Below, in pieces: positions 12,383 through 61,050 of a DNA stretch of 64,000 bases (within the stretch, counting starts at the first letter, position 1; every line of letters begins with the position of its first letter). The position numbers were made by a program, and so were the translations under genes. The notes beneath the pieces are model-generated. The model was not told where the DNA came from. It searched no databases and saw only the letters and a list, made by a program, of their open reading frames with translations. Source of the stretch: Chloroflexota bacterium (GTDB taxonomy: Bacteria > Chloroflexota > UBA11872); NCBI GenBank assembly GCA_026706485.1, contig JAPOYR010000010.1, positions 333,798 to 397,797 on the forward strand, written 5' to 3'.

Positions 12383-12488
12383 GTGGCCGGTCGCCGATCG
12401 CAACGTGTCGCGCCCAAGAACGGAAGCCACGACTTGACGGTTGCCAGGAGGTCGAGCGCCTGCTTGGCTCAACTCACCAGCGGATCAC

Positions 12489-13084: not shown

Positions 13085-13128
13085 GGCTGCTACCCCCGCG
13101 ACTTCACCAGCAGCTTGGCAGCCGGCGA

Positions 13129-43997: not shown

Positions 43998-46055
43998 ATG
44001 GAGGCCAGGGCGGCACATTGGCGGTTCGCGCGCATGACGCCATCGCAGGTCAACGAAGACCCGGTGCAGGGCGAGTTCTTCACTGCAGCTGCCGATCTAC
44101 CTGATCGGCTGGTCCGGGAGTCGATTCAGAATTCGCTCGACGCACGCCGGGGAAGGGAAACGGTGCGCGTCCGCTTTGCCTTCAGCGGGTCGCAGCACGC
44201 CTTGCCTGTACATGCCGCGCAGCGCTGGCTGGCAGGACTTGCTCCTCACCTCGAGGCCCTCGCCCGACCGGGCTCTGACGAGTCTTCCGGTTCGACCAGA
44301 ATTGGTGCAGAAGCGGATGCGATGCGCGGTGCCCTGGCCTGCCTCAACCAGCCAATGACGTGGCTCACAGTTGGCGACTCCGGCACCACCGGTCTGCTCG
44401 GTGACATTACGGCCAACCGTGAGCGGGAGGCAGGAAACGATTTCTGGGGCTTTTTTCGTAGCGTTGGAATCTCGCCTAAGGGCCAAGACTCTGGCGGCTC
44501 GTGGGGTCTAGGCAAGTGGGTATTCCCCGACGCCTCCCGCATCAATGCCTACCTGGGCGTCACGCACCGAGCAAATGAGGATCACGCCATGCTGATGGGC
44601 ATGGCGATGCTCAAGACCCATCACATGACGGCTCAAGACGGGGACGAGGTCAAGTACCCGCCGTATGGCTACTACGCTGCCGCAGCACACGAGGACGACG
44701 ACGAATGGCTGCCGCTACCAGTCACGGCCGACTCTAGTCCCGCCGGACTCGTGGCCAACGCAATTGCTGACTTTCAGCTTGAGCGGCGTGGAGACGGACC
44801 CGGGCTCTCAGTTGTCGTGCCCTACCCGAGGGAAACCGGGGAAGAGGATGAAGAGGTCCTCACGCCGGCCACGATCGCCCGTGCTGTGGTCATCCAGTAC
44901 TTCCTGCCTATCGTACGCGGTGACCTGGAGGTGGAGATCGTTAGGCCCGGCGAGGGCGCCCGCGTCATCGATGCCGCGACCATCGAACGCGAACTGGCGA
45001 TCATTAAGCCCCGGCGCGATGACAACGCACCAGACTGGTTGCGCGGCGCGGTAGAGCTCGCACGCTGGGCCGTCGGGCTCGACGATGGTGCACACCTTGA
45101 GCTTCCCGTCCCGACCGGCAGGGACAGCGACTTCGAGGGTGTGGACCTTCCGGCACTCCGTGAGCGATACGACCGAGGGGAACGTCTGGCATTCCAACTG
45201 GCGCTGGATGTGCGCACCCGTGACCCCGACGAGCTGACTCCAGCCAATTTCCGCGTCTATCTCGAACGCGATGATGACTTGCCCAGGGGGCACGACTATT
45301 TCGTGCGCGGCCATCTGCGCATCCCCGAGATGGATCACATTCGGAGCCATAGGGCACGCGCTCTCGTGCTGGCTCACGGCGAGTCGGATTTGGGTCACCT
45401 GCTGCGTGATTCAGAAGGACCCGCGCACGCATCTTGGAGTCCGCAGGCACAAAGGCTAAAGGACCGATGGATTGGTGGTTACTCCCGAGTTCAAGCCGTG
45501 CGCCGCGCTGCGGCTGTGCTCTTGCAGCGCCTGGCCGAGCGCCCCGAGGAGAAACAGTACGACGCCCTAGCGGACTTGTTCCCATCCAATCTGACGGCGG
45601 AGCGCGGCCGCGGGCGAACGCGGCGTCCGGGGACGGGCGGCCTGGATCCAGTGGAGCCCATCAACGGCGGGGCAACGGCGGCGCTGGCGACGGTATCGGT
45701 CCCTGGGGGATTCCGCGTGCGCGCGGGGACGTTGGGCGGGAATGGAGTTTCAGGCTCTGAGTGGTCGCTGCGCTTTGCCTACGACGTAGCACGCGGCGGC
45801 AAGAGCCGTGCCTTCCGGCAATACGCGCGGGGCGCCGACCAGGAAGCGCCTGATTTCTCGCTCCGCAGCGGGCAGGTGCGCGTCGAGCAGCAAAACTGCG
45901 AGCACGAAGTTACGGGCGAGAATGAGTTGCGATTCCTTGCGCTTGCCGATGACTTCAGCCTGACTGTGACCGGCTTAGATGAGCGCGATGTGCTAGTTGA
46001 AGTGCAGCAAGTTGACACAGCCCCGGCACAAGCGACCGACGGAGAGCAGGAATGA
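43998..46055 (+). CDS. GHKL-type ATPase, first gene of a three-gene operon
   Basis: 685 residues from the ATG at 43998. An earlier ATG at 43965 is possible, but no good ribosome-binding site marks either. The GHKL fold is shown by 'DLPDRLVRESIQNSLDARRG' (N-box, residues ~35-54), 'TWLTVGDSGTTGL' (G1 box, ~120) and 'GGSWGLGKWVFP' (G2/lid, ~165). The rest has an S5-like transducer region (about 340-470) and a C-terminal beta domain. MORC/Hsp90-like ATPases of this shape work as ATP-gated clamps and appear in several defence systems (e.g. with nucleases or methylases). It overlaps the next gene by ATGA. It is transcribed away from the leftward defence genes. Confidence 0.7.
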   Translation: MEARAAHWRFARMTPSQVNEDPVQGEFFTAAADLPDRLVRESIQNSLDARRGRETVRVRFAFSGSQHALPVHAAQRWLAGLAPHLEALARPGSDESSGSTRIGAEADAMRGALACLNQPMTWLTVGDSGTTGLLGDITANREREAGNDFWGFFRSVGISPKGQDSGGSWGLGKWVFPDASRINAYLGVTHRANEDHAMLMGMAMLKTHHMTAQDGDEVKYPPYGYYAAAAHEDDDEWLPLPVTADSSPAGLVANAIADFQLERRGDGPGLSVVVPYPRETGEEDEEVLTPATIARAVVIQYFLPIVRGDLEVEIVRPGEGARVIDAATIERELAIIKPRRDDNAPDWLRGAVELARWAVGLDDGAHLELPVPTGRDSDFEGVDLPALRERYDRGERLAFQLALDVRTRDPDELTPANFRVYLERDDDLPRGHDYFVRGHLRIPEMDHIRSHRARALVLAHGESDLGHLLRDSEGPAHASWSPQAQRLKDRWIGGYSRVQAVRRAAAVLLQRLAERPEEKQYDALADLFPSNLTAERGRGRTRRPGTGGLDPVEPINGGATAALATVSVPGGFRVRAGTLGGNGVSGSEWSLRFAYDVARGGKSRAFRQYARGADQEAPDFSLRSGQVRVEQQNCEHEVTGENELRFLALADDFSLTVTGLDERDVLVEVQQVDTAPAQATDGEQE

Positions 46056-46822
46056 TCCGCCGGCTGAATAGCACCGGGCGTCGGACGGTCAAGCGTGAGC
46101 ATGCCAAGGTGAGCCTGCGCCCGGCGGAGAATGGCGCTCCGTCGATTCACGACATGCAACTCGATCTCGCTGGCTACGGCTTCCCGCCGGACGCTCGCGT
46201 GCGCGTCGAGGCCTGGCGCAGCAATGCCGTACAGCGCTGGGACTACGGCACCGTGGGCGCGCTCACGCCACCATCTGCCGAGCAGCGCCGAATGACTGAG
46301 GTGCCGGAATCGTCCCAGTTTCGCGTGCTGGTGGTTGCCGGAGACGGTTCCGGACGGCTGCTGGGACACATGCCCAGCATCAAGCCAGTTCTCCCGCTGC
46401 GCTCGTTGCTTCCGGTGCGTGAAGTCGACGAAGACGAGCTTGGCGGAGAGATTTGGCGCGTCGACTTCGGGGATGGCGACTTACCCGAGCTGTGGGTCAA
46501 TCGCGCGGTCGGCGGGATCAGCGAATTCGTCCGCACTAACAAGGACTTTCGGGCCCTCGTAATGCCCGCCGTGCTACGCGTGATTCTCACACGCATTCTT
46601 ATAGACGAGCGCGCCGATCCAGAGGACGGTGAGAGCGCTTGGGAGGGCTGGTTCCGGCTGGCAAGCAACCTTCTCCCGGATGCAGACGTCCCACGGATTG
46701 AATCGAATGGGGAGGCAAACGACCTAAGCGAAGCCAGGAGTTGGATCGACTCGGTGGTGGGGGCATTCGCGCGCGACAGAGTATTCGCTGTCGGTGCTTA
46801 CTCAAAGCCTTGGGACTACTAG
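46052..46822 (+). CDS. Hypothetical protein, second gene of the GHKL operon
   Basis: 256 residues, start overlapping the GHKL stop. An N-terminal beta domain (VSLRPAENGAPSIHDMQLDL, 'GFPPDARVRVEAWRSNAVQR', 'QFRVLVVAGDGSGRLLG') is followed by 'GEIWRVDFGDGDLPELWVNR' and a helical C-terminus. The motif 'G-x-I-W-R-V-D-F-x-x-x-x-x-P-x-L-W-V-N' is probably the family signature. I know no name for it. The coupling implies a subunit of the same complex. Confidence 0.55.
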   Translation: MIRRLNSTGRRTVKREHAKVSLRPAENGAPSIHDMQLDLAGYGFPPDARVRVEAWRSNAVQRWDYGTVGALTPPSAEQRRMTEVPESSQFRVLVVAGDGSGRLLGHMPSIKPVLPLRSLLPVREVDEDELGGEIWRVDFGDGDLPELWVNRAVGGISEFVRTNKDFRALVMPAVLRVILTRILIDERADPEDGESAWEGWFRLASNLLPDADVPRIESNGEANDLSEARSWIDSVVGAFARDRVFAVGAYSKPWDY

Positions 46823-46853
46823 GCAGCGTAGTGCGTGCTCCTGATCTGGCTCA

Positions 46854-48608
46854 GTGCAACGGCTGCCTACCAGGCGCCAGGCGTCCGGGCAGGTGATGTG
46901 TTGGCGAGATGCCCATGAACTGTTGCAGCGCTATTCGGATTACCAGACCGCTCAAGAAGCCCGGACATTCGGCCGATATCCGCGCGGACAGAGAATCTGG
47001 CCGCCCATCGTTGGGCTTGCCGATTTGCCAGACAGCGCACTGCTGCATGCCCGTCTCGTTCCGTCCGCGATCGACCGCCATCCGAGCGATCCGGAATTGT
47101 CAGACACCATGGACGCACGTTTGGCAGGCACCGGCGGCTGGAAGCCCCGTGGCACCGATTCAGATGGGGCGACGGTGAGCGAGCACGGCCACTCCCCCCG
47201 GTCCACCGACGTTCAAGCGGCGCTTGCGGCATTGGTTGGGGCGCGCGCGCACATCACGGCCGAACAGGGACTGCCTGGTCGCGTCGACCTGCACGACCTC
47301 ACCGGCGGTAATCCACTCGCCATGAGACTGTTGAGCGACGCTCTTGGTCACCCCGCAACGCGCGTGCGAAAGCGCTCGGCGCGCAGCGCAATCATGTCCG
47401 CCCTCAGCGCTCTTGATGGTCCGCCGCAAGCCGATCGCCCTGGCACAACGACCCTGCCCGGAAGTCCGGTGACGAATGAACCGGCCGATCGGACCAGCCC
47501 CGAAGGTGGGAGACCGCCCGGCGCCTTGGTTCGCCGACTAACCGCGGATGGCCTGCGGCGTGCGCGTGAGTTTCTTGCCGAAATTCGCGAGCGCCCGACG
47601 GCCCTGTCCGAACCGCCGCGCGATCTCCTCTACGACGAGCGCTACAGCCGCCCATTCCAACCAGAAGTTTGGATCGAGCGTCGCTCCTTCCGCACGCGCC
47701 GCGAGGCTGCCGAGTATTTCGCTCCCAAGCTTGCGTCCATCCGGCATCTCGTGGCCGACCATGCGGGCGTTTGGTCTTGGCTCGGGATGTACTACTTTGC
47801 CGAAACGGTGCGCGTCGAAGACGGCGAGGTTCGACTGTCGCCGCTTGACGAGACCTTTGTTGTACACCGCGAGGACACTCGGTCCTACATGCTGAGATTC
47901 CGCCATTACCTCTGGGGAGCATGGAGGCTCTATGAGATGCACGGCGAGACGGCTGCATTCCTGCTGAACCAGGAATTGACTTCGTTCGGTGATATTGCGC
48001 AACGAACGTTTGGTGCAATCCGAATATTTAACTCGGCTGGAATTGTCCCGCTAATTCTGCGCCTATATACCAAAGACGGGCAACAGAAGCGAGGCTTTGG
48101 CCACGGCCCCGGAGGCTTGCGGCATCTTCTCCGGGTGTTGGACCAACTCGAACGGACGTACGACGTTTACGGCATGGCACCTGATGCACTAGCAAGGGTG
48201 CTGCCCGACGAATTCCGGCGCTGGGATGGTGTGGCCGAAAGTGCTCCGGATTTGGGGGGCACCAACGCATCGGACTCTTCCTCGGTTCGCAGCGTCGACG
48301 ACGATCCGCCCGCGGGAGATCATTTGACGCCTGCGAGCGATTCAGCAACCAGTAGTGTTCCCGCTCGCGCGGTCGACGAGGCTGGCTTGGCCTCGGTCGA
48401 AGTCACGATCCGCGAGCTCGTCGACGCGCGCGCAAGGATCCAGGCGCTCGAACCAGTGACGTGGGTGGACCTGCGAGGATATCTCGAGGAAGGCTCCGAG
48501 TGCTGGAAGGCGTACGTTTCAGCGCACGGAATCCCTGAGACTCGCCTCTTTCGCGATATTGCCCTGAGCCGACTAGCTGACGCCATCCAGTCGATCGGCG
48601 GTGGCTAA
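46854..48608 (+). CDS. Hypothetical protein, third gene of the GHKL operon
   Basis: 584 residues from a GTG, 31 bases after 46822 (an ATG at 46896 is possible). The N-terminal ~90 residues (CWRDAHELLQRYSDYQTAQE, 'FGRYPRGQRIWPPIVGLADL') and the central part (WSWLGMYYFAETV, 'RSYMLRFRHYLWGAWRLYEM', 'AFGAIRIFNSAGIVPLILRL' with T for A) look like a large alpha-helical protein of the kind filed as DUF6339. That name is tentative. Two linkers of low complexity (about residues 85-230 and 470-520) suggest a scaffold. No nuclease motif seen. Confidence 0.5.
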   Translation: MQRLPTRRQASGQVMCWRDAHELLQRYSDYQTAQEARTFGRYPRGQRIWPPIVGLADLPDSALLHARLVPSAIDRHPSDPELSDTMDARLAGTGGWKPRGTDSDGATVSEHGHSPRSTDVQAALAALVGARAHITAEQGLPGRVDLHDLTGGNPLAMRLLSDALGHPATRVRKRSARSAIMSALSALDGPPQADRPGTTTLPGSPVTNEPADRTSPEGGRPPGALVRRLTADGLRRAREFLAEIRERPTALSEPPRDLLYDERYSRPFQPEVWIERRSFRTRREAAEYFAPKLASIRHLVADHAGVWSWLGMYYFAETVRVEDGEVRLSPLDETFVVHREDTRSYMLRFRHYLWGAWRLYEMHGETAAFLLNQELTSFGDIAQRTFGAIRIFNSAGIVPLILRLYTKDGQQKRGFGHGPGGLRHLLRVLDQLERTYDVYGMAPDALARVLPDEFRRWDGVAESAPDLGGTNASDSSSVRSVDDDPPAGDHLTPASDSATSSVPARAVDEAGLASVEVTIRELVDARARIQALEPVTWVDLRGYLEEGSECWKAYVSAHGIPETRLFRDIALSRLADAIQSIGGG

Positions 48609-48619: not shown

Positions 48620-48778
48620 CGGCGTGACTTTGCCCCCGCACCTGACCTTTCGTCCGGCCGAGGCGCCCATGTGGGCGGACTTCGAGCGGCTGCTCGATTC
48701 ACCGGGCCGTTGTACTGCTGGTGCATGCCGCCGCGGGCGATGGCCACAGAGGGAACGGCTCCAGCAAGGAGGTCGCCG
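48620..48778 (+). pseudogene. GNAT acetyltransferase, N-terminal scrap
   Basis: 'LTFRPAEAPMWADFERLLDS' continues, after a frameshift, as 'SPGPLYCWCMPPRAM'. The 'W-x-D-F-x-x-L...CWCM' pattern is the start of a GNAT subgroup. The acetyl-CoA-binding part is missing. Confidence 0.4.
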
Positions 48779-48985
48779 ATGACTAGCCATAAGACGCGCA
48801 AGGCTGAACCGCGGGCATCTGCCTCGTTTACGCGCGAGCTGGAGGCATTTGTCCGCGACTGGGAAGAACACCTAGTCCGAGTCGGCTATGCGCCGCGCAC
48901 AGTGAAAACACACGTCCGCGGCCCAAGCGTGATGTTGCGCTGGCTGCGTGGTGAAGTGATTGCGCCGGGGCAGACGGGACGCTGA
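48779..48985 (+). CDS. Short integrase-like N-terminal domain protein
   Basis: 68 residues with AAGGAGG at ideal distance before the ATG. MTSHKTRKAEPRASASFTRE, LEAFVRDWEEHLVRVGYAPR, TVKTHVRGPSVMLRWL. This resembles the SAM-like core-binding domain of tyrosine recombinases ('F-x-x-W-x-x-x-L...G-x-A-x-x-T-V-x-x-H-x-R'). The catalytic domain is absent, so it is a truncated integrase or a stand-alone binding domain. Confidence 0.4.
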   Translation: MTSHKTRKAEPRASASFTRELEAFVRDWEEHLVRVGYAPRTVKTHVRGPSVMLRWLRGEVIAPGQTGR

Positions 48986-49436: not shown

Positions 49437-50234
49437 TCAGTCAAGGTCGATGACCAGACGACAATGGTCGCTCGGTCCCCACTCGTCAGGTTCGTTTAGG
49501 GCGCGTGCCGTCACGCGGTCGGCAATGTTCTCCGTGGCAAAGACGTAGTCAGCTTGCGCCCAGGCTTGCGCAGGCGTCTCGCTGATTGACCGGAAGGTCA
49601 CGACATCACCACGATCGCTGCGGCGTCCCTCAGGCACGACGTGGCGAAAGCCCAGCGCCTGCATTCGGTCGAATGCCGTCCTGAAGTGCAGGGCCTCCCG
49701 CTTGTTCCAGATCGCGGTCGGATGGGTGCTCCATCCCGGATAGATGACCCAGTCGCCAGCGGCAATGACTCGGCTCCGGCGGCCAACCAGGCGCGCGAGA
49801 TCGGAGATCAGCCGGTGCACCGAACCGATGGGCTCGCGGCGACTCGGGGAGCCCGACTCGTGCGTGAAGGCGTTGGACCAGGGCGCCATCGAAATGACGG
49901 TGAGCGGCTCGCCGCCGTCAACCGGGGTCACTATCGCGGCACCGAGCGTGGCCCACTCGCTGGTGTAAAAGTCGTTACTGAATTGATCTCCGATTGGCCC
50001 CGTGGCAATGAACTTGACGCCGACACGGTCCGATAGCCGGGCCACGACCGAGGGATAGCCCTGGCCGGCATTGCGGCGCCTTTGCCAAAGTCGGTGGTCG
50101 ACGTCGACGAGCTGATGAAGGTCCTCAGGCACGCGCGAGGCTTCCTGCAAGAGCCCGATGTCGACATCGGCCATCTGCACCAGGTCAGCCCATGATCGGC
50201 GCTTGGCCTCCATGTTCCAGCAGACGATCTTCAT
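49437..50234 (-). CDS. Endonuclease/exonuclease/phosphatase-family protein
   Basis: 265 residues from the ATG at 50234; the longer frame upstream is shadow-like. The fold is set by 'MKIVCWNMEAKRRSW' (Asn), 'DIGLLQEASRV' (metal Glu), 'SRVIAAGDWVIYPGW' (Asp) and 'EWGPSDHCRLVIDLD' (Asp-His at the C-terminus). In standard members the third block reads GDxN; here Asn is replaced by Val, which may alter activity. Family members hydrolyse phosphodiesters in DNA, RNA or lipids. It lies 222 bases past the DUF499 stop, on the same strand, so it may be the nuclease of that system. Confidence 0.75.
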   Translation of the reverse strand: MKIVCWNMEAKRRSWADLVQMADVDIGLLQEASRVPEDLHQLVDVDHRLWQRRRNAGQGYPSVVARLSDRVGVKFIATGPIGDQFSNDFYTSEWATLGAAIVTPVDGGEPLTVISMAPWSNAFTHESGSPSRREPIGSVHRLISDLARLVGRRSRVIAAGDWVIYPGWSTHPTAIWNKREALHFRTAFDRMQALGFRHVVPEGRRSDRGDVVTFRSISETPAQAWAQADYVFATENIADRVTARALNEPDEWGPSDHCRLVIDLD

Positions 50235-50455
50235 TGGACGTGCACCCCAATCAGTTCGATTCTCTGGTCCAGCTTCAACGTTTGCCTGTAGGAGTAGGAC
50301 GACGGTCAGTACGGTGCCGGCCCGACCTGGTCGGCGGCTGCGTAACTTCGCCCAATAGGTCTTGCGCTTGTCGTTGCCGCCCTTGTTCTGGCGGTTCGTA
50401 TGATTCCGCCAGCACCGCGGATTCGGACGTCGACTCTGAGAAGCACGGCGCCGTC

Positions 50456-53218
50456 CTACGACCGTTGCATCCGCACCTGGTCTTGAAGTCCCAGGTCGCT
50501 CAGAATCTGCGTTAGCTCCGTCTCCATGTTTTGCGCATGCGCGGAGCCGACGGTCACTGAGAAGTCGACCGTCACCACGAGATCGTCGCCAGCGCGCAGC
50601 TTTGGAATCAGCTTCGTCCCGAGTCGGTTCCAAGTCTCCGGCGGAACAGGCCCGGAGAGGCGAATAGTTGTGGTGCCTGTGCCGGGACCCGGGCCAACGA
50701 TCGGTGGTGGTTCGGGGCCTGGCGGCGGTTCGGTGCCCGGACCCGTCCCGTTGTCCGGTTTCGGCGGCGGAGCTTCGCTTGCCGCCCTGAGTTCCTCAGC
50801 TTTGGCCTTGGTCAGGAGAAACACATCGGCCTCAAACGCCACTTCCTCTGGCAGAACAGGCTCCCGATACCACCAGCGCTCGAAGCCGCCGTCGGGCTTT
50901 GCGCCGGACGCTAGGCCGAAGTCACCCCGCGCTACAAAGTCGACGATCTGCCGTCGCAGGATGGCGTCTGGATCGATCAGGCGGGTCAGCGCGCCCGTAA
51001 GGAAGCTCTGGCGCAAGCTCAGCAGCGGCCAGGCCGCCGCATCTTTGAACGCGGGCGGCCAATGGCGATCGATATACCCCGCGCCGACGGACTCGTTGAG
51101 CAGCGCCTCGGTCTTTAGAGCGCTGATGATCCGTCCGCAAAGCGTGTCGCTGGCGCTGGCGTGCCCCGCGCCAAGGTCGATCACCTTGAGTCCGTTGCTT
51201 TCGTGGGAGTCGGCAAGCACAACGAACCGATAGGCGGCCCAAACCTCGTCCATTGCAGCCTGCTCCGCCTCTCGGACGCTGGCCCGCACGTCGGAGCGAT
51301 CCGCGCTGTCAAATTCGCTGCCCAGAGCGCCGTCGCGCACCTCTTTCTCCACTCGCCGCCACGCCAGCCACATTTCGGCTTTGTCGCGAAGCTCTCGGCC
51401 CGGTCTCCTCGCGCACCAGACCAAGGAACCCGGATACAGCCGGGGGGAACTACCCCGTTCCTTGGTCCATCGGCCAATGCGCTCGACGACCCCGATTGCC
51501 TGCCACTCCATCTCCGGATCGAGGACGACCAGCGTGAGGCGCGATGAGTCTTGAACGGCACTGCTGTCCTGTGGGAAGAAAACGACCGGAACGCTCGCAC
51601 TGGCTTTGAAGGCATCTTCGACAAGCCTGCGAATTGCAGGCCTGACTTCAGTTTCCTCATCGAGCGAGGCGCGACGGTCGCTTACGACCTTCTTCAGGGT
51701 CGCCTGATGGTGGATCAGGTAGCCGTCCGTTCCGTACCGGCGCACGAAGAAGCTGCGTGCTTCCAGCGCGTTCGCCATGCTGTCAATGGTCGTAGTCTCG
51801 ACTTCCGGCTCACCGAGGGCGAACCGCAATTCCGGCAGGTGCGCCACTTTCTCGAACTGTCCCCCGGACGACTCGAAGAGGATTGCCGTGCCCACCCGGC
51901 GGTGGATATCCCGCAGCGCTCCCTTGGTGTCCGCGTCAAGAGCCCTGGCATGGGCCATCGGTCCCGCCAGGTCGGCTTCGATTGCCACGTCGAGCCGTGT
52001 CTCTCCTAGTTGACCGAGAACGACAGCGCGGAACTCGGGCACGTGCAAGGGCGCCGAGCCCAGCGTGATCAACGGCTCAGTTCGAGCTTGTCGAAACTGC
52101 TCACGCGAAGCCCACGAGATCCACTGCGCCAGCATGGCCAGGGCGCCGCGGGTCTGTTGAAACTGGGGGAGCGCTTGCCACTTGCGCTGAAAGACCGAAA
52201 GCGTCGCCGGATGGAAGGGATAGCAGGCTTCGAATCGGCCTCTCAAGAACTCCTTGGCTCGGTCTTCCGTCGTCGCGGTATCCACGGCAAGCCACTCGGG
52301 TGGGAGCCGGGCAGTTCGTTCGAAGCACCAGTCGGCGTAGGCCCTGGCAACCCGCTTGCGAATGCGAGGCTTGCCCAAATCCTCGAAGAGCCGCCGTCGC
52401 ACGACCTCGCTTATTTCGGACTCGTCATTGGCGATCAGATCCCGAGCAACGCGCCGCACCACCTTGGTAATCCGTTCCTGCCATTGCTGATCCCAATCGG
52501 TCATTTCTACCTGGCTGCGCGGCAGGCTGATGACTGCCGCAGCTTGCGTGGTGCCGGTCACGGCGACGGTCAGGTTTTGTAGGAACGCGTGAAAGCTGTC
52601 GGCCATTCCTCGATGGCGGTTAACAAAGTTCAGCACTTCGTCGAACAGCAGTAGCACCGGGGCATCCGCGGCAGCGAAGACTCGGGCCAGCGCTTCGGTG
52701 CCTGGTGGAGCAGTTCGCGCGGCGGCGCCCAGGGCGACGACGCCCGCGTCCCCCGCCAGTTGGCGGGCCAAATCGATCCAGGGCGTTTCGCGCCCCTCGG
52801 TTGGGTCCCAAGCATTGCCGACAAACACGCCGACGCGGGCCGATGGCACAGTCGCAACCCCGGCCATGGTGAGCAGACCCGACACGCCCGGCAGCCCAAC
52901 GGCATCCGCACCGGTGTTGGCCAGGTGATACAGCGCGGTGAGTGTGTGCGTCTTGCCACCGCCGAACTGCGTGATGAGCGCCAGCACCGGCGCCGTGTTC
53001 TCAGTCCGCCCGGACAAGCGCCGCAGCACCATGCCGGCGTGCTCGGTCAGCGCACGGGTAAAGCACGTGCGGGAGAAGAAGTGCGCAGGGTCCCGGTAAT
53101 CCGGGGGCGCGGTTCCCGCCACTACCTGCTCGAGGGCGATGGCGAACTCGTCGGGACTGAAGGATCGGCCTTCCCGAACTTCCGGACGGAGAGTTACAAC
53201 TCGATACCAGGGATCCAT
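50456..53218 (-). CDS. DUF499-type AAA ATPase
   Basis: 920 residues. The start 'PWYRVVTLRPEVREGRSFSP' and 'DPAHFFSRTCFTRALTEHAG' is the DUF499 signature. Walker A is 'ALITQFGGGKTHTLTALYHL' (~residues 85-100) and Walker B 'PVLLLFDEVLNFVNRHRG' (~190). The middle has 'QFQQTRGALAMLAQWI', also typical. A Pro/Gly-rich linker (GPGTEPPPGPEPPPIVGPGP) separates a small C-terminal beta domain. In the family this ATPase sits beside a DUF1156 DNA methylase and an SNF2 helicase, as here, and is predicted to drive DNA restriction or translocation. 85 bases after the methylase stop, same strand. Confidence 0.8.
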   Translation of the reverse strand: MDPWYRVVTLRPEVREGRSFSPDEFAIALEQVVAGTAPPDYRDPAHFFSRTCFTRALTEHAGMVLRRLSGRTENTAPVLALITQFGGGKTHTLTALYHLANTGADAVGLPGVSGLLTMAGVATVPSARVGVFVGNAWDPTEGRETPWIDLARQLAGDAGVVALGAAARTAPPGTEALARVFAAADAPVLLLFDEVLNFVNRHRGMADSFHAFLQNLTVAVTGTTQAAAVISLPRSQVEMTDWDQQWQERITKVVRRVARDLIANDESEISEVVRRRLFEDLGKPRIRKRVARAYADWCFERTARLPPEWLAVDTATTEDRAKEFLRGRFEACYPFHPATLSVFQRKWQALPQFQQTRGALAMLAQWISWASREQFRQARTEPLITLGSAPLHVPEFRAVVLGQLGETRLDVAIEADLAGPMAHARALDADTKGALRDIHRRVGTAILFESSGGQFEKVAHLPELRFALGEPEVETTTIDSMANALEARSFFVRRYGTDGYLIHHQATLKKVVSDRRASLDEETEVRPAIRRLVEDAFKASASVPVVFFPQDSSAVQDSSRLTLVVLDPEMEWQAIGVVERIGRWTKERGSSPRLYPGSLVWCARRPGRELRDKAEMWLAWRRVEKEVRDGALGSEFDSADRSDVRASVREAEQAAMDEVWAAYRFVVLADSHESNGLKVIDLGAGHASASDTLCGRIISALKTEALLNESVGAGYIDRHWPPAFKDAAAWPLLSLRQSFLTGALTRLIDPDAILRRQIVDFVARGDFGLASGAKPDGGFERWWYREPVLPEEVAFEADVFLLTKAKAEELRAASEAPPPKPDNGTGPGTEPPPGPEPPPIVGPGPGTGTTTIRLSGPVPPETWNRLGTKLIPKLRAGDDLVVTVDFSVTVGSAHAQNMETELTQILSDLGLQDQVRMQRS

Positions 53219-53303
53219 GTTCTAGGTCACTACCGGCATGAGAACGACGGCGTCGCGAAATGACTCTCGGTTCCCAGGAATGACCATCGTGTAGCCCACT
53301 AAA

Positions 53304-56234
53304 TCACCGCGGCACCGCAAGGAGCATGGCGTCGAGCAGACGTTTTTCCTGGCTGCCGCGAGGGTAAAGGGCGGAGAGAGCGTTGGCGAGACGCAGGAAG
53401 TCGGGTCCGCGGTCCTGCTCAGCCTCCAGCAAGTTGCGCAGCGCCTGTGTGCGCCCCGACCCTTGAAAGAGCATCGCGATGTGGACCCGGTCCAGCGTGG
53501 TGGCTTCCAGCGTAGCTCGAAGTTCGTCTCCCGCAGCCTGTGCGCGTACGCGGCGCCGCGCACGGGTTCGCGTGCCGGCGGGCTCGGCAGGGAACAGGGT
53601 GAGCTGCGCCGCGGCTTCCGCGCTGGACTCGATCTCGTCGGCCAGTCCGCCGGCCCCGGACTGGCCGAAGAGTTGCCGGCTGCGTGCCGCGACCGGCAGC
53701 AAGCGCACAACGCCCTTACGCGTCTCGATGATGCGCGATCCCCAGTCGTCCAGATGGATGCCCAGCGGCTGGGCGAACCGGCGCACCACGTCGAAAGGCA
53801 GGCTGTAGGCGGCGGCCGTTCCGCGCGGAATCTCATCTTCGTCGGAATCCCCGCCCCCGCTGGTGCTCTGCAGCGTCCAGAGAAACAACGCGGTCAGGCG
53901 GGCGTCTTCTTCAAGCGCCGCGGCGAGACCATTGCGGGCCTGGGCCTCGGCGGTTCCCAGCACCTGGCGCAACGCCTCCGTTCCGACAACCTCCCAAACT
54001 CTCTCAAGGTATTCCGAGAGGGCGACCTCTCGACCCTCCGCAGTCTCAACGGCGGAATAGCGGCTGTAGATCTCCAGAGCCGGACCAACGCACGCAAAGA
54101 CCAAGTCCGCGCCGCGGATACCTTCGCCCTGCAGGCGCTCCATCCATGAACCGACGCGCACCGGCAGCTCCCGCAGTACATCGGCCCAATCGCCAATTCG
54201 TGCATCTCGAGACCGCGGCCGGCAAATCAGATGCACACTGGTTGCCAATGCTGCAGAGTCCTGCGAACGAAGCCGACCAGGCCTCTCAGTTGCTATGGGC
54301 CAGGAACCCGTGATAGTCCAACCACCCTGGATCATGCCGGAAAGAAGAGCTTCCCATCCTTCTGTGGTCTTGTGGGCGAAGACCACCGAGCCGATTCCAT
54401 CCTCATGCAATATGCGCCGGCCCTCAGTGAAGGCAACAGCCATGCCATCTTCGAAGAACTGTTGGTCCTTGTGAGGGTAACGCTCGGAGTCCCAGTGGGC
54501 CATTTCACATAGTTCTTGGTCCTTGGGAGTCAGTTGGTTGTCCGGATCGAAGGGATCTTTCAGCAAAGGATGATTGGGCAATGCACGCTTCAGCCATACA
54601 AAGAAAAAGTCAGAAAGGTCGGCATAGGGGACTGCAAAGTAGTACGGCGGGTCAGTAAACCAGACGCTGGCCGAATGGTCAGGCAGTGGATGGTCGGCCC
54701 CATCGGCCTGCTCAACTTGACCTGTTGGACACCCGGGGATTGCGTTGATAACTCTAGCGATCCACCCTATTGCTCCGTCGATATTTCCAGACGAATCCGT
54801 TAACTGTGCGGCCTCGGCAAAGTCCCAGACCATAGGCAACGCTTGTCTGCCAAAAGTATGGGCGACAAATTCGCCCCCTTCTGCCCAAATCACGCCAGAA
54901 CTTCCGTAGTCAGCACATCTTCCAACTACCATAGCTAGAGCCAAGCTCGCTACATCTCCATCTGAACTTCTCGCAATCCCGCTCGCGAATTCTACCAACG
55001 CCAGCTTCTGCCTAGCCGTAAACAAGTCGCCCCATGTATTGATGCCGTAAATCGGAACGTTAAAGGTTCCGCTCATCAGCGGCAGCACCTCATTTGGTAC
55101 AGGACAGAGACTCTGCTGCCCGCTGCGCTCCCACTCGACCAAGAGACTCTCCACACGCTTCTGCGCCGATCGAACCGCCGCATAGTCAGTGTGCGTCGGC
55201 AGCCGGTATCGGCGGCCCCGCTCGCTGGACCTGAGCGTCACCACCGCCGTCATGCGGGCACCTCCGATGCGATTGCCCTCCGCATCGAAAACCGTGTCCG
55301 TGCCGCCGCGCTGACTGGCAAGCTGTGCGCGAACCCTCTCCGGCGCGAGCACCGCGCCGCAGCAGAGACAGGTGGCCCTGGCTCGGGCGACAGTGCCGCC
55401 AGGAACCTCATGGTCGGCTGTTGGGATGAATATCTCGAAGTTCACCCACGGCGCAACGCCGTCCGCCCGTTCCACCCTGGGCCACAGGGCCCGCTTGCGC
55501 TTCGGTTTCTTGCACAGCCATAGTGACCGCAGCAGTGGTATCTCGGCACCGCAGTTGGGAGCTTCGCAGCGCACGGTGCGCGCCCAGAGATAGGCGATGG
55601 GCGTGGCCCCATCTGGGTCTTTGGGATACAGGTCTGCCAGCTCCCGCTCAGCCTTGGCCTTGATTTCCGCGCCGACCCGCTGAAGCTCCTCGGCCAGCTT
55701 CGGACCGTGCCGCGGGATGTCCTCCAGCATCACCTTGAGGATCAGGCAGGCCACCGGGTTGAGGTCACTGGCGAAGGCCTCGCAGCCCAGCCGCAGCGCC
55801 TCCAACGGAATGGATCCACCCCCCGCAAACGGGTCCACCACCAGCGGCGTCTCCTGCGGGTGCGCAGCCTTTACCAGCATTCGCGCAACGCGCAGATAGA
55901 CCGGAAATGCCGCCATGTCCCAGTTGGCGAATGCGCCGATGAACCAGAGCAGCGCCCGGCGAAGCTCCTCATCGCTGCGTGGCGGCTGCCGAACTTCGCT
56001 TAGGATCGTTGGCGCCTGGGTCTTGAACGCCTCAGGACAGTTGGGATCACAAGGATCGGGCAGCAGCAGCGCCATAAGCACCGCGCGCGACGAGGCCAGT
56101 GGCCTCCGCGCCCACCAAATGTGCAACGTTGACGGATGCCCATGCCGGATTGATTTCTCACGCGCCGCGTGCCGCGAGACCTCGGCAATGGGGAAGTCCA
56201 CCTCAGCCAGGCGTTTGCATGCCTTAGGAATCAT
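53304..56234 (-). CDS. DUF1156 DNA methyltransferase
   Basis: 976 residues. The N-terminal DUF1156 block reads 'AEVDFPIAEVSRHAAREKSI', 'RHGHPSTLHIWWARRPLASS', 'RAVLMALLLPDP' (residues ~9-55). Motif I for SAM is 'VVDPFAGGGSIPLEALRLGC' (~137-156), and the catalytic motif IV is 'VWFTDPPYYFAVPYADLSDF' (~527-546). The length is usual for the family, annotated as adenine-specific methylases. DUF1156-DUF499-helicase neighbourhoods were predicted as a restriction-like system. The methylase would protect host DNA. Intact, with all key residues. Confidence 0.85.
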   Translation of the reverse strand: MIPKACKRLAEVDFPIAEVSRHAAREKSIRHGHPSTLHIWWARRPLASSRAVLMALLLPDPCDPNCPEAFKTQAPTILSEVRQPPRSDEELRRALLWFIGAFANWDMAAFPVYLRVARMLVKAAHPQETPLVVDPFAGGGSIPLEALRLGCEAFASDLNPVACLILKVMLEDIPRHGPKLAEELQRVGAEIKAKAERELADLYPKDPDGATPIAYLWARTVRCEAPNCGAEIPLLRSLWLCKKPKRKRALWPRVERADGVAPWVNFEIFIPTADHEVPGGTVARARATCLCCGAVLAPERVRAQLASQRGGTDTVFDAEGNRIGGARMTAVVTLRSSERGRRYRLPTHTDYAAVRSAQKRVESLLVEWERSGQQSLCPVPNEVLPLMSGTFNVPIYGINTWGDLFTARQKLALVEFASGIARSSDGDVASLALAMVVGRCADYGSSGVIWAEGGEFVAHTFGRQALPMVWDFAEAAQLTDSSGNIDGAIGWIARVINAIPGCPTGQVEQADGADHPLPDHSASVWFTDPPYYFAVPYADLSDFFFVWLKRALPNHPLLKDPFDPDNQLTPKDQELCEMAHWDSERYPHKDQQFFEDGMAVAFTEGRRILHEDGIGSVVFAHKTTEGWEALLSGMIQGGWTITGSWPIATERPGRLRSQDSAALATSVHLICRPRSRDARIGDWADVLRELPVRVGSWMERLQGEGIRGADLVFACVGPALEIYSRYSAVETAEGREVALSEYLERVWEVVGTEALRQVLGTAEAQARNGLAAALEEDARLTALFLWTLQSTSGGGDSDEDEIPRGTAAAYSLPFDVVRRFAQPLGIHLDDWGSRIIETRKGVVRLLPVAARSRQLFGQSGAGGLADEIESSAEAAAQLTLFPAEPAGTRTRARRRVRAQAAGDELRATLEATTLDRVHIAMLFQGSGRTQALRNLLEAEQDRGPDFLRLANALSALYPRGSQEKRLLDAMLLAVPR

Positions 56235-56259
56235 CTAGAGATTCCGGCTTCGGCTGACT

Positions 56260-58377
56260 TCACGCCGCCTTTCCCCAGCGGTGCTGCACGTACTTCACCG
56301 CCTCGTTCACCGGAAGCGGGCGGGTGGCATTGCCAGTGCGAAGGAAAAAGACCGCGGAATTTCGGTCATCCACGTAGATCGGATGGTCGCTCGCTTCGAC
56401 CGTCACCTGGCAAACGTCATGTCCGTCGATCTCGTGGAAGGTGATTGTCAGGTACGACGACGCCGCTTCGCCGAGATCGCGCGCGACGAGCTGTTGCAGG
56501 TGCAGCTCGAATCCGTCTCGATCCTTTTTCTTCAAGGTCCCGTAGTCAGCCGAGATCCCAACAGCGGCTCCGGCGTCGTCGACGCCGATTAGGAGTGTGC
56601 CGCCGTTCCCGTTCAGGAATCCGGCCATCGTCTTGATAGCAACCTTCTCGAGTTCCTTGTTCACACGCTCATCGCGACGGTCCCAGCGAAGACTTGACTT
56701 GAATTCGAGCGTGTCGTTCTCGCCCGCCTCCATGCGCCGTCGAACGGCAGACTCGTCCGTCTCATCCTCTTCACCCTTGGGAATCCAGCTGGCAATGAAC
56801 TCATTCATGGCCTGGGCCAGCAACTGCCTGCGGGCAGCAAGGAAGTTGAAGAAGCTATCCGCCCCCCATAGCTCCCGATCCATCGGCACTCTTTGTGCTC
56901 GGAGTGCGCCCGGCTGATTCCCTTCAATGTCGACGAGGTACTCCGCCGGGGACGCGGCGGCTATCTTTCGATTGGCCTTCTGTGTGAGGAAAGCCCGGTT
57001 TGCAACCTCGTTGATTGACCGGCTATCAGACTTTGAGTGCAGCCCCGCCTTTAGGAGAATCTTTCTCGGAAAGATGTGGTGAGACTCAAGGCCGTTGCGT
57101 TTGCCAACGGCGTCGTCGTAAAGCCGAATACCCGAGAACCAGTCTCGAGCGCCACGAGCTCGGGCCAACACATAGCTGAATCGTCCCAAGGCCGAGCCGA
57201 TGCCCGCCCCGGCTAGGTCGGACGCCTCCAGGGTAAGCCGACCCCGCTCGCGCAAGATGGCTGCCTCAAGCTCAGGCGTGGGATCGGGGTCACTGTTGGA
57301 CACCAGGGCCGTGTCTTGCTGAAGCTTCGTCTCGGTTGCGCCCGAGTACCGCGCCCACAGGCCGGCCAAATACATCCAACGGATAAACCGGCGCTTGATC
57401 GCGTCATTCGGAAAGCTACCCCCCTGCCGCGCGAGGTATACGGTCATCGGCACGAGGACGTTGCTGGTCGGCAAGTCATTTAGATCGTCGACAAATGCCT
57501 CGTGCTTCAAGACGTTCACGAGATGCTCAAACGCCACCTGCGTCTCAAGCCAGGCATCTTGAAGCTGCTCCGCAGGAACTCTAAGGAACGCACCTTCCAG
57601 CGTCACCGATCCAGTTGCTATACCGGCGAGGCATCGGACGAGGAAACCGAAATCCCCCCCGAACCCGTGCTTGGTCATCTCCCCATTGAATGTGCGCAGC
57701 TCTGCGCGGGCCTCGGGCCAAATGCTGCAAATGTGGGCCAACGCTAGATCAACCTTGGTAAGCGGCGTTCCACTGCTATTGACCCGATTAAAGATGTCTA
57801 CCACTTCGTCGACGGTATAGTTGTCTCCCGTCACCTGGTCGACCGTATAGTTGTAGCCGCGAATCTGGTCAAGCCTGGCAAGTCTGGACAGATTGTTCTG
57901 GATGATTTCCCGGAGCTCATCAGGCAAATCTCCTAGCCTGTCCAGCAAGCTATTCAGCCCCTCACTAAGAAAGTCGTGAACACTGAACCAGGCGGGATTG
58001 TTTTCCATATGGGTCTTTTGCCAAAACCGGAATTCTTCAGTTTGCACATTGAAGTAGAGGTCGAAGAACAGCGACTCACCTTCGTAGAACGGCGGCGCCT
58101 TCCCTTCGACTAGAACGTATAGCGTCGTAAGCCGCTGCTGGCCATCGAGGAGCAACAGGGAGTGGCCGTTGGAACTCGAATCATCCCCGCGAACTGTGGA
58201 CGGCTTGTAGGTTCGCCATACAAGCAGATGGCCCGTTGGGTGCTTGCGATACAGCGACTGCATGAGGCCTCGTACCTGGTCACGCTTCCACACATAGCCG
58301 CGCTGGAACTCAGGCAACAGAATTTCATTCCGCTCGATCTGGCTGAGCAAGTCCTGGATGGATTTCACTTCATGCAT
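56260..58377 (-). CDS. DUF262/HNH protein fused to an AlbA_2 (Schlafen-type) domain
   Basis: 705 residues. N-terminal DUF262: 'LLPEFQRGYVWKRDQVRGLM' (~19-38), 'LLLLDGQQRLTTLYVLVEGK' (~74-93), 'NRVNSSGTPLTKVDLALAHI' (~200). Then a DUF1524-like part with 'GLESHHIFPRKILLKAG' (~437) and 'VANRAFLTQKANRKIAAASP'. From ~555 a Schlafen AlbA_2 domain follows: 'ENDTLEFKSSLRWDRRDERV', 'AIKTMAGFLNGNGGTLLIGV', 'DDAGAAVGI'. DUF262 proteins are NTP-driven nucleases for modified DNA, and AlbA_2 domains bind or cut nucleic acid. The fusion suggests an added recognition or cleavage module. Moderately lower GC than the methylase. Confidence 0.75.
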   Translation of the reverse strand: MHEVKSIQDLLSQIERNEILLPEFQRGYVWKRDQVRGLMQSLYRKHPTGHLLVWRTYKPSTVRGDDSSSNGHSLLLLDGQQRLTTLYVLVEGKAPPFYEGESLFFDLYFNVQTEEFRFWQKTHMENNPAWFSVHDFLSEGLNSLLDRLGDLPDELREIIQNNLSRLARLDQIRGYNYTVDQVTGDNYTVDEVVDIFNRVNSSGTPLTKVDLALAHICSIWPEARAELRTFNGEMTKHGFGGDFGFLVRCLAGIATGSVTLEGAFLRVPAEQLQDAWLETQVAFEHLVNVLKHEAFVDDLNDLPTSNVLVPMTVYLARQGGSFPNDAIKRRFIRWMYLAGLWARYSGATETKLQQDTALVSNSDPDPTPELEAAILRERGRLTLEASDLAGAGIGSALGRFSYVLARARGARDWFSGIRLYDDAVGKRNGLESHHIFPRKILLKAGLHSKSDSRSINEVANRAFLTQKANRKIAAASPAEYLVDIEGNQPGALRAQRVPMDRELWGADSFFNFLAARRQLLAQAMNEFIASWIPKGEEDETDESAVRRRMEAGENDTLEFKSSLRWDRRDERVNKELEKVAIKTMAGFLNGNGGTLLIGVDDAGAAVGISADYGTLKKKDRDGFELHLQQLVARDLGEAASSYLTITFHEIDGHDVCQVTVEASDHPIYVDDRNSAVFFLRTGNATRPLPVNEAVKYVQHRWGKAA

Positions 58378-58492
58378 TGCGGTACCTCAAACTGCTGAGG
58401 CCATTTGGGCGGATCCGCGTGGCTCGGAGGACAGGGGCGTGTGGCATCCATCTGCCAATCGCGTGATCGAGCCCCACTGATTCATATCGCGT

Positions 58493-59190
58493 TCACGCAT
58501 CGTGCGTCCGCCCTCCATAGGGAGGCTGATCTTCCCGAACGACCATCGGCTGGGTCAATGCGTCGACCGCCAGCCGATAGTGTTGCACTTTTCGGACCTC
58601 GTGACAGGGGCGCTGGGCCGGATCCTTGATGGCCTCCTGCAGTTTCGGTTCGGCCGCGCAGTTGGTGACGACAAACAGCCAGTAGTTGAGATCGCTCTCC
58701 AAGCCTTCACAGCCCAGTCGCAGCACATCCAGCGGTATTGCGCCTACGCACGCAAGCCGGTCCACTACCACCGGCTTCTCCACCGGGAGCTCGGCCCGCA
58801 CCAACGACCGGCCCACCGTTACGTATTCGGGATCCACGGAGTTATCATAGTCAGCGAAGCTTGCGATGAACTGAAGCATCACACCCCGCAACCCCGCATC
58901 AGTTCTGACGGCCTTGCCTCACCCTGCCAGACCCAAGCGCAGCCCAACCACAGAGCGAAACGCCTCTTCCTTGAACTGCTCTGGGCACTGAGAATCGCCA
59001 GTGTCGGGCAGGACCGGAGACACGAGCATAGCGCACGACGAGCCGAAAGGTCGCCGTGCCCACCAGAGAGTTAACATGCAGGGGTGTCCACACCGAATCG
59101 CCATCTCTGGAGCCGCATGCCGTCAAGCTCCAGCGATTGCGAAGACCAATTCAGCGAGGCGTTTGCGGTCTTTCGGGATCTCAGTAGCGC
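58493..59190 (-). pseudogene. Chimeric pseudogene: DUF1156 methylase start joined to helicase end
   Basis: From about 59190 the minus strand reads TEIPKDRKRLAELVFAIAGA, TGA, RHAA..., 'AIRCGHPCMLTLWWARRPFG', 'EQFKEEAFRSVVGL', then in another frame 'MLQFIASFADYDNSVDPEYV' and 'VVVDRLACVGAIPLDVLRLG', 'CEGLESDLN'. All of this matches the first ~160 residues of the DUF1156 methylase at 53304. It switches mid-gene to 'YWLFVVTNCAAEPKLQEAIK', 'DPAQRPCHEVRKVQHYRLAV' and 'DALTQPMVV', the last ~60 residues of the helicase at 62159. A deletion must have fused the start of one gene to the end of another from a second copy of the system. Confidence 0.75.
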
Positions 59191-59312
59191 CTAGCCCGAA
59201 CACATCTACGCTCCGTTCCGAGGAGGGGTCCTCAGCGGAGTCTTATCCGACATGCGTCGCATCAGGCGACAAAGTAAACTGAACCATTAACGATTTCATG
59301 CCTTGCTCTGCT

Positions 59313-61049
59313 CTAATTCCTGTTCTGTCTCCGCATATTCTCCACGGATTCGTTGAAGTCCGGAACATCTCGCTCCTGAGACCACTCGTCCCAAAAGTCT
59401 ATCGTAGCGCTCAATGGCTTCTCGCTAGGCGGATGAATTCGAATCCGACTCGGCAAGAGAACAGAATCACCAACCACAAGAGCTTCTCCGATATCAAGAA
59501 TCGGAAGCGTGTCCATGAGACCTTCGAGACTCTCTGGCATCAAACGACGCACTGTTGATTGATCGTCACTATTAGTAAGTCGCAGAGACATAACGTTATG
59601 GCACTGACTCAATATTGTCGCACTCACGTCAGACGGTCGCTGGCTCACCACTAACAGTGCCACCCCATATTTCCGGCCTTCCTTGGCAATTTTCTCAAAA
59701 TTCTCAATTGCACGTTGCTCCACGGGATTCGCACCTTCCTTATGCGACAGATAAACGTGAGCTTCGTCGCATACCAGTGCCATAGGCTTGCGATTCTTTC
59801 GATCCGTCCAAAACTGGACCTGGTAAATAACTCGGGCAACGAGCCCGACAATAACAGGCAATATCTCAGCTGGTACTTCCGAAAAGTCAATGACTTTGAT
59901 CTGGGATTCATCGGCCGAGTAGTCGACGAGCTGTTTGACGATATCTGCCATCGCGAAATACTCGTGTGACGCAGACGGTGCTTGAAAGAGGAATCCATAT
60001 CGCTTGTCAGTAAGCCTACTATTCAGACGCAGAAGCAAACGGCTAAACTGACCATGAAACGGACCGTTCTTTTCTCCCCTGGAACCTGGTATGCGCTCCT
60101 CATTTAGTCGCTTTAGCTCTTGCACTACATCGTCTATCGCAAAAGGGATGGGGCTGTCCAATGTGAAAGCACTCAAGACTTCCACATTATTCAGTTCCTC
60201 CAAGCCCTTCTTTTTCTCAGCTACCACCGCGTCCTGAAACACCATCACCTGGTTGTGCGCGCTAAACTCACTTCTGTCTATGAACATTGCCTGAAGCTCT
60301 TCGGCATTCAGCAACCAGTAGGGCAGGAAGAGAAGTGACTCGCTGGACTGCCCTAGTTCCTCGGGACCCGGAACGCGAAGATGACGGGCGTAAGAGAGCT
60401 CTCCATATTCCCCGTGAAGATCGAACACGATCAAGTTGGCCGACGGAAGGCGTGAGGCTTGCTCCAATATTGCTGCGACTGACCACGATTTCCCGGATCC
60501 AGTGCTACCAAGTAGTGACGCATGACGTTGAAAGAATCGATTGCCATCCAAATATGCCGCAGCATTCTCGTCTATCGTATACCTACCAACTTCAAGCGAG
60601 TGAGCTCCCTTAGTCTCCGCCGACAGAAGGGCCATAAACGCTTGCAGAGGAGCATCCCTCAGCACAAGGCACTTGCCATCAATCTCCGGCACTTGGATTA
60701 GCGAACGCGAGAATTGAGACTCATTTTCAAGACTTTGCGAGACAGTGCCCACGAGGGTAATTCGAACAGAGTTAAGAACTCGCTCCCGCTGGACCGTCAA
60801 GTTCGCTATCTCCGGATCTTCGTCGAGCTCCGAATCCGTAAGGTCTTCAAGAACAGGCGTCTTTACCACGCGATCGATTACACCAATCAGCCATTCATCG
60901 ATCGGTCCCGGCAACTCAATTGCCACCAACTGGCCGACCCGTGCTTTCCGGAGATCTTCGTCACTGTCTACCTGAACGTCAACCCGTCGCGTGTCCACAG
61001 CGCGAATGCTACCGAGTTCGTGCGACGCATCGAACGCAAAAATCGCCAT
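59313..61049 (-). CDS. herA: HerA-type ATPase of a SIR2-HerA defence pair
   Basis: 578 residues from the ATG at 61049, one base after the SIR2 stop. An N-terminal beta-barrel (HAS-type) domain is followed by Walker A 'ASLLGSTGSGKSWSVAAILE' (~180) and Walker B 'KPMALVCDEAHVYLSHKEGA' (~425), with the HerA-type 'EGRKYGVALLVVSQRPSDVS' and 'ATILSQCHNVMSLRLTN'. HerA forms hexameric rings and, with SIR2, assembles into a large complex that senses phage DNA. Visibly AT-richer than its flanks, like SIR2, so the pair was probably acquired as one unit. Confidence 0.85.
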   Translation of the reverse strand: MAIFAFDASHELGSIRAVDTRRVDVQVDSDEDLRKARVGQLVAIELPGPIDEWLIGVIDRVVKTPVLEDLTDSELDEDPEIANLTVQRERVLNSVRITLVGTVSQSLENESQFSRSLIQVPEIDGKCLVLRDAPLQAFMALLSAETKGAHSLEVGRYTIDENAAAYLDGNRFFQRHASLLGSTGSGKSWSVAAILEQASRLPSANLIVFDLHGEYGELSYARHLRVPGPEELGQSSESLLFLPYWLLNAEELQAMFIDRSEFSAHNQVMVFQDAVVAEKKKGLEELNNVEVLSAFTLDSPIPFAIDDVVQELKRLNEERIPGSRGEKNGPFHGQFSRLLLRLNSRLTDKRYGFLFQAPSASHEYFAMADIVKQLVDYSADESQIKVIDFSEVPAEILPVIVGLVARVIYQVQFWTDRKNRKPMALVCDEAHVYLSHKEGANPVEQRAIENFEKIAKEGRKYGVALLVVSQRPSDVSATILSQCHNVMSLRLTNSDDQSTVRRLMPESLEGLMDTLPILDIGEALVVGDSVLLPSRIRIHPPSEKPLSATIDFWDEWSQERDVPDFNESVENMRRQNRN

Positions 61050-61050
61050 A

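What the first reader, a model, noticed from the sequence alone, without database searches (positions are those of the whole stretch)
43998..48608. Three-gene GHKL operon: candidate undescribed defence system
A MORC-like GHKL ATPase, a ~256-residue beta/alpha protein and a ~580-residue helical protein are joined by overlap and short spacing, next to and divergent from known defence genes. GHKL ATPases recur in defence, but I cannot match this trio to a named system. No nuclease is encoded in it; the neighbouring EEP protein or the methylase operon could supply one.
Basis: inference. Interest (0 to 1): 0.65.

Follow-up and report, generated by a model that had tools for sequence, protein, structure and literature searches.

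The report
Three-gene paraMORC restriction-like defence module
Three linked genes, led by a MutL/MORC-type ATPase, form a conserved cassette found across many bacterial phyla and some archaea, often beside a cytosine methyltransferase, and are probably an untested DNA-restriction-like defence against foreign DNA.

Summary
The three-gene operon is real. A (GHKL ATPase), B (~256 aa) and C (~570-584 aa) lie in order on the + strand at 43998-48608. B and C follow A in 70 of 71 related genome loci with room for them, across many bacterial phyla and some archaea. A keeps every GHKL ATP-site residue plus an invariant ExxxH motif, the stated signature of paraMORC2; the MORC-specific motif is absent. 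B is predicted to be an FN3/Ig-like sandwich plus helices. C's core is all-helical with no PDB match. No nuclease family was recognised in A, B or C. The layout is not wholly undescribed: PADLOC holds it as an uncharacterised candidate, PDC-M33 (third gene = DUF6339). The window trio is a separate, divergent branch: A matches PDC-M33A weakly, B and C are linked only by profile-profile comparison. In 23 of 80 relatives the trio is beside a C5-cytosine methyltransferase, usually with Vsr or an HhH glycosylase and mostly no restriction enzyme, so it appears to fill the restriction slot. The window's own clade has no such partner. Hma and the EEP gene are neighbours, not partners, and are convergent, not divergent. 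Best reading: a MutL/MORC-like ATP-gated DNA-restriction module. Antiphage activity is untested.

The parts
43998..46055 (+). gene A: GHKL ATPase, paraMORC2-like (685 aa); N-box R40-E41xxQ44-N45-S-x-D48, D127-x-G-T130-x-G132-L133, G167-S-W-G170-L-G172-K173, E473xxxH477
   Evidence: ORF; PADLOC PDC-M33A E=3e-16; motif residues invariant in all window-type (80) and M33-type (13) sequences aligned, except two gapped rows and K173
46052..46822 (+). gene B: 256 aa, predicted FN3/Ig-like beta sandwich (res. 8-117) plus C-terminal helices; remote counterpart of PDC-M33B
   Evidence: AlphaFold model pLDDT 91.7; VIA-align Z up to 8.5 to Ig/FN3-like domains only; hhalign score 36.5 to M33B against a null maximum of 20.0
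46854..48608 (+). gene C: 584 aa as listed (start probably ~46893/46896); all-helical core at about 47529-48248, remote homologue of DUF6339/PDC-M33C, flanked by low-complexity linkers
   Evidence: model of residues 215-470, pLDDT 93.5; no PDB match; hhalign to M33C prob 90.7, score 54.9 against a null maximum of 18.1
47211..47436 (+). first copy of a ~60-75 aa accessory domain (R) inside gene C
   Evidence: aligned with the C-terminal copy, score 53 against a shuffled maximum of 43 in 500
48396..48605 (+). second copy of domain R, C-terminal in gene C; in relatives L013 and L023 the same domain is N-terminal

Best explanation
The trio is a mobile, ATP-driven defence module of the paraMORC/PDC-M33 kind. 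Proposed mechanism: a dimeric GHKL ATPase (A) closes on DNA when ATP binds, as MutL, type II topoisomerases and MORC do. B (Ig-like) and C (helical, DUF6339-like) are obligatory partners that recognise DNA or regulate loading. The complex restricts incoming DNA, either by exciting a nuclease held in C or supplied by the host, or by clamping and looping the DNA. In the ~30% of relatives that carry it, the linked C5-cytosine methyltransferase would mark self DNA and Vsr or an HhH glycosylase would repair the resulting 5mC deamination, leaving the trio in the place usually taken by the restriction enzyme. The window's clade runs the trio without a linked methyltransferase, so self/non-self would be told by another cue or by an unlinked methylase. 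Shown: gene set, order, motifs, predicted folds of B and C, distribution, methyltransferase/Vsr linkage. Inferred: ATP-gated clamping, roles of B and C, restriction as the outcome.
For: A-B-C kept in 70 of 71 loci over many bacterial phyla and some archaea. Patchy presence: 8 of 101 relatives and absent from the five same-genus genomes searched; 12 of 400 genomes in the phylum with the family profile. ATP-site residues and ExxxH invariant. C5-methyltransferase within 5 kb in 23 of 80 relatives against under 1% expected from the density of C5-methyltransferases in 43 of these genomes. Compact operons A-B-C-Dcm-Vsr (L063, L073, L093) and A-B-C-Dcm-HhH glycosylase (L066, L071, L095) with no restriction enzyme seen; EcoRII is added in L087 and L096. 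The seven PDC-M33-like plasmid loci read all lie by restriction-modification genes: Dcm, Vsr, AlwI, MutH/Sau3AI, type II enzymes, Shedu. The window's neighbourhood is a defence island: Hma, HEC-05, GmrSD, SIR2-HerA, a mad8-like HerA, a PDC-M54A/Avs2-like STAND NTPase. MORC/paraMORC proteins were assigned to restriction systems on neighbourhood grounds (PMC2292703), and a paraMORC3-type GHKL-nuclease, VcSduA, protects against phage and needs its ATPase Glu (PMC12137116).
Against: No nuclease was recognised in A, B or C, and 57 of 80 relatives, including the whole window clade of 20, have no linked methyltransferase, so 'restriction' rests on a subset of relatives. Several members sit among housekeeping genes (secA, enoyl-CoA hydratase, P-type ATPase). 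No antiphage test of any member was found. No structure of A was predicted.
Confidence: 0.5

Rival explanations
1. Non-nucleolytic silencing: the trio is a self-sufficient clamp/loop-trapping machine that compacts or silences foreign DNA, as eukaryotic MORCs compact DNA; methyltransferase and Vsr are optional add-ons.
For: Most relatives and all 20 members of the window clade lack a linked methyltransferase or conserved nuclease; no nuclease signature in A, B or C; B and C are obligatory.
Against: In the methyltransferase-linked operons a self mark appears to matter, which a pure silencer would need less; C keeps H137, K198, D223 and E239 (model numbering) at 82-99%, so a hidden active site is not excluded.
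Confidence: 0.2
2. Repair or maintenance of C5-methylated DNA: a dedicated MutL-like helper for Vsr/glycosylase correction of deaminated 5mC, with no defence role of its own.
For: Operon linkage with Dcm plus Vsr or an HhH-GPD glycosylase; MutL-Vsr interplay is known in other bacteria (established knowledge; also cited in PMC12907096).
Against: 57 of 80 relatives lack a linked methyltransferase; the PDC-M33 sister occurs with restriction enzymes without Vsr; plasmid and viral-contig residence of PDC-M33.
Confidence: 0.12
3. Abortive-infection effector: A senses infection and B/C kill or arrest the cell.
For: Defence-island setting; an AIPR gene follows Dcm-A-B-C in L068; a paraMORC4-TIR family exists (PMC2292703).
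Against: No toxin-like domain by sequence or fold in B or C.
Confidence: 0.12
4. The trio is an accessory of the neighbouring Hma (helicase-methylase-ATPase) system.
For: Adjacent in the window; HmaC and HmaB models match 50456-56234 strongly.
Against: Convergent orientation; no HmaB, HmaC or EEP homologue in 83 trio loci, and only two weak HmaA C-terminal helicase matches.
Confidence: 0.03

Closest known systems
PADLOC candidate PDC-M33 (PDC-M33A/B/C; C = DUF6339, PF19866)
   Same: Same three-gene order and sizes; A homologous (E=3e-16 to the PDC-M33A model); B and C colinear and detectably related by profile-profile comparison.
   Different: Window B and C are invisible to the PDC-M33B/C and DUF6339 models; A forms a separate branch of the tree; window C carries extra domains; the window has no restriction-modification partner directly linked.
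paraMORC2 GHKL family (Iyer et al. 2008, PMC2292703)
   Same: GHKL ATP motifs with a strongly conserved ExxxH C-terminal to them; neighbourhoods with C5-methyltransferase and Vsr in relatives.
   Different: That paper reports SFII helicases and restriction endonucleases as common neighbours; the compact trio operons here mostly have neither, and B and C are not described in its text.
Shedu with GHKL N-domain (paraMORC3, VcSduA, PMC12137116)
   Same: GHKL ATPase of the MORC/paraMORC radiation in phage defence.
   Different: VcSduA is one polypeptide with a DUF4263 nuclease; the trio has no DUF4263 and needs two other conserved genes.
Hma (helicase-methylase-ATPase) system
   Same: Immediate neighbour in the window.
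   Different: None of the three proteins matches an Hma model; not co-conserved.

Membership tests
PDC-M33 | A matches PDC-M33A | tested here: met
   57 bits, E=3e-16, best stretch 26-228; far weaker than a typical member (279 bits)
PDC-M33 | B matches PDC-M33B | tested here: inconclusive
   No HMM hit at E<1; hhalign score 36.5 against a null maximum of 20.0, partial, colinear
PDC-M33 | C matches PDC-M33C / DUF6339 | tested here: inconclusive
   No HMM hit; hhalign prob 90.7 over 237 columns, score 54.9 against a null maximum of 18.1
PDC-M33 | gene order A-B-C, overlapping or closely spaced | tested here: met
PDC-M33 | antiphage activity | not testable with these tools
   PDC-M33 is itself only a candidate; no paper on it found
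paraMORC2 | intact GHKL ATP-binding motifs | tested here: met
paraMORC2 | conserved ExxxH in the C-terminal part of the S5 domain | tested here: met
   E473/H477 invariant 80/80 and 13/13; that it lies in an S5 fold was not checked
paraMORC2 | sequence kinship to named paraMORC2 proteins of the 2008 paper | not tested
   those sequences were not at hand
MORC proper | GhXhhpXXRhl motif in the S5 domain | tested here: not met
   0 of 93 sequences
Shedu / paraMORC3 | C-terminal DUF4263 nuclease | tested here: not met
   no Pfam hit in A at E<1
Hma | homology of the trio to HmaA/B/C | tested here: not met
Hma | co-occurrence of trio and Hma | tested here: not met
   no HmaB/HmaC in 83 trio loci; two weak HmaA C-terminal helicase matches

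The most novel reading that the evidence does not exclude
A restriction-modification-like system without a conventional restriction enzyme: a C5-methyltransferase marks self DNA, Vsr or a glycosylase repairs deaminated 5mC, and a three-protein paraMORC machine (GHKL clamp, Ig-like protein, helical DUF6339-like protein) does the restriction, possibly without cutting DNA. The window carries a branch that has dispensed with the linked methyltransferase.
Probability: 0.3. Interest if true: 0.8.

Novelty: new variant of a known kind. Interest (0 to 1): 0.52.

Why it matters
Prokaryotic MORC/paraMORC ATPases have been predicted since 2008 to work in restriction systems, but the papers found here report a test only for the nuclease-fused Shedu form. 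This cassette is small, widespread (224 relatives in one scan of species genomes) and in many genomes stands alone, or with only a methyltransferase and a mismatch enzyme. That makes it a clean test of what a MORC-type ATPase does to foreign DNA without a helicase or an evident nuclease, and it links an uncharacterised PADLOC candidate to a second large branch that current models miss.

Tried and rejected
Hma or EEP as functional partner: rejected, convergent and never co-conserved. Nuclease in B or C: no family or fold hit; C has a few conserved charged residues, so not excluded. MORC proper: motif absent. VIA-align showed only Ig/FN3-like domains for B (LacZ/GH2, FN3, antibody domains) and nothing at Z>=2 for C; that shows neither a function nor that the C fold is new. 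Hhalign of A1 against A8 is circular because rows are shared; not used. Window-type trio in viral contigs: none confirmed, while PDC-M33-type A gave 8; in the phage collection window A gave none and the M33-type one. Integrase-like ORF after the trio (48671-48985): no Pfam hit for its C-terminal part, no second copy in the genome. Empty-site search with the right flank in 7 relatives: nothing matched, so uninformative. L077 lacks B and C but its A is a chimeric ORF, set aside.

Full report
Observation. The window holds three + strand ORFs at 43998-46055, 46052-46822 and 46854-48608, here A, B and C. A-B overlap by 4 bases. C is listed from a GTG 31 bases after B; the best-matching relative suggests a start about 13-14 codons later. 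The genes to the right (49437-63925) are all on the - strand, so the trio is convergent with them; it is divergent only from the - strand genes at its left.

Surroundings. Right: an EEP-like protein (49437-50237, sub-threshold PF03372), HmaC, HmaB, a GmrSD-N/AlbA protein, a SIR2-HerA pair and an HmaA C-terminal helicase. Left: a mad8/HerA-like ATPase, a STAND-type 1505-residue protein near PDC-M54A/Avs2 and a HEC-05 GmrSD protein. The trio lies in a defence island.

Conservation. The window lies in a Chloroflexota genome, judged by its nearest named relatives. A occurs in 8 of 101 relatives and none of the five same-genus genomes searched, and with a family profile in 12 of 400 genomes of the phylum: accessory, not core. 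One scan of species genomes gave 224 relatives of A; the best 80 were read. Of 71 loci with at least 1.7 kb after A, 70 carry B and C in order; the exception, L077, has a chimeric A. The loci span Chloroflexota, Acidobacteriota, Gemmatimonadota, Planctomycetota, Pseudomonadota, Nitrospirota, Bacteroidota, Verrucomicrobiota, Actinomycetota, Nitrososphaerota and others. Seven loci, all near the window branch, carry two C genes.

A. All GHKL ATP-site residues are kept: E41, N45, D48, D127, T130, G132, G167, G170, G172 and, with few exceptions, K173; E473xxxH477 is invariant in 80 of 80 window-type and 13 of 13 M33-type sequences. ExxxH in the C-terminal part of the S5 domain is given as the mark of paraMORC2 (PMC2292703). 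The MORC-specific motif is absent in 93 of 93. No solved structure matches by sequence, and I did not predict A's structure, so the S5 domain is assumed.

B and C. B: model pLDDT 91.7; residues 8-117 resemble FN3/Ig-like sandwiches (best Z 8.5, a level that can mean only a common arrangement), followed by helices. C core: pLDDT 93.5, all-helical, no PDB match. C of the window also has two copies of a ~60-75-residue domain, one before and one after the core; in L013 and L023 it is N-terminal. No nuclease family matched.

Relation to PDC-M33. Plasmid relatives annotated with DUF6339 as the third gene match PADLOC PDC-M33A, B and C and Pfam DUF6339. Window A matches PDC-M33A at E=3e-16; B and C match nothing. 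Profile-profile comparison with enlarged M33 sets: C-C prob 90.7, score 54.9 (60 column-permuted controls at most 18.1; cross pairs at most 22); B-B score 36.5 (controls at most 20.0). A tree puts the M33 sequences apart from the window-type family (FastTree, with several long branches). I conclude that the trio is a divergent branch of the PDC-M33 layout; it is not a member by PADLOC's own B and C models. I found no paper on PDC-M33 or DUF6339 in the library.

Partners. 23 of 80 relatives have a C5-methyltransferase within 5 kb of the trio, usually with Vsr, or in three loci an HhH-GPD glycosylase. Expected by chance: under 1% per locus, from at most ~92 matches in ~186 Mb of 43 of these genomes (my arithmetic). 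In L063, L066, L071, L073, L093 and L095 the genes run as one operon A-B-C-Dcm-(Vsr or glycosylase). A sample of other neighbours shows EcoRII in two loci (L087, L096), Mrr and GmrSD in one, AIPR in one, and otherwise unrelated or housekeeping proteins. Methyltransferase linkage changes 17 times on the tree; the window's clade of 20 has none, although individual members lie near a GmrSD/AlbA protein, type I-like or type III-like restriction genes (L013, L025, L031). The seven PDC-M33-like plasmid loci read all adjoin restriction-modification genes. The window genome's only C5-methyltransferase match is on another contig.

Mechanism. Established for MutL, topoisomerase and MORC ATPases: ATP-driven N-terminal dimerisation and DNA capture. 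Inferred here: A is the clamp; B and C are recognition or effector subunits; the complex restricts foreign DNA. The methyltransferase plus deamination-repair operons are what a C5 restriction-modification system looks like with its restriction enzyme replaced by the trio. Whether the trio cuts, or only clamps and silences, cannot be told from sequence. A recent paper shows that a Vsr-like protein can lead to DNA damage when its methyltransferase is missing (PMC12907096), so Vsr might also contribute nicks.

Limits. Loci were chosen by similarity to A, so the families are biased toward the window's side. Gene calls in the relatives are mechanical. Neighbour annotation was sampled, not complete; masked or short contigs hide partners. 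No function was tested.

Noticed in passing
window 48671-48985 (+): Short ORF directly after the trio whose second half (..FVRDWEEHLVRVGYAPRTVKTHVRGPSVMLRWLRGE..) reads by eye like the N-terminal SAM-like part of a tyrosine recombinase; no Pfam hit for that half, no second copy in the genome. Possibly an integrase remnant at the island edge.
   Followed up: partly
window 47211-47436 and 48396-48605 (+): A ~60-75-residue domain occurs twice in gene C, before and after the core; in relatives it is N-terminal only (L013, L023) or C-terminal only (L025), i.e. it moves within the family.
   Followed up: partly
L019, L020, L022, L023, L026, L027, L029: Two C paralogues per trio in the window's clade; in L027 one lies upstream of A. 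The window itself has one.
   Followed up: partly
L066:9528-10229, L071:8966-9640, L095:5541-6179: An HhH-GPD glycosylase takes the place of Vsr after the C5-methyltransferase, including in an archaeal genome: apparent exchange of one deamination-repair enzyme for another.
   Followed up: partly
window 56260-62169: A GmrSD-N/AlbA fusion protein and a SIR2-HerA pair lie between HmaB and the HmaA C-terminal helicase, so the Hma operon has other defence genes nested inside it. GmrSD/AlbA-type proteins also appear near the trio in L013 and L036.
   Followed up: no
L017:563-3501 and 9893-13636: A haloarchaeal plasmid carries two divergent PDC-M33-like trios around a C5-methyltransferase.
   Followed up: no
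L068:8206-15421: Dcm-A-B-C followed at once by an AIPR (abortive infection) gene on the same strand.
   Followed up: no
window 26246-27079 (-): One ORF matches both an N6/N4 DNA methylase (C-terminal part) and an HNH endonuclease: a possible fused methylase-nuclease, or the truncated remnant of one.
   Followed up: no
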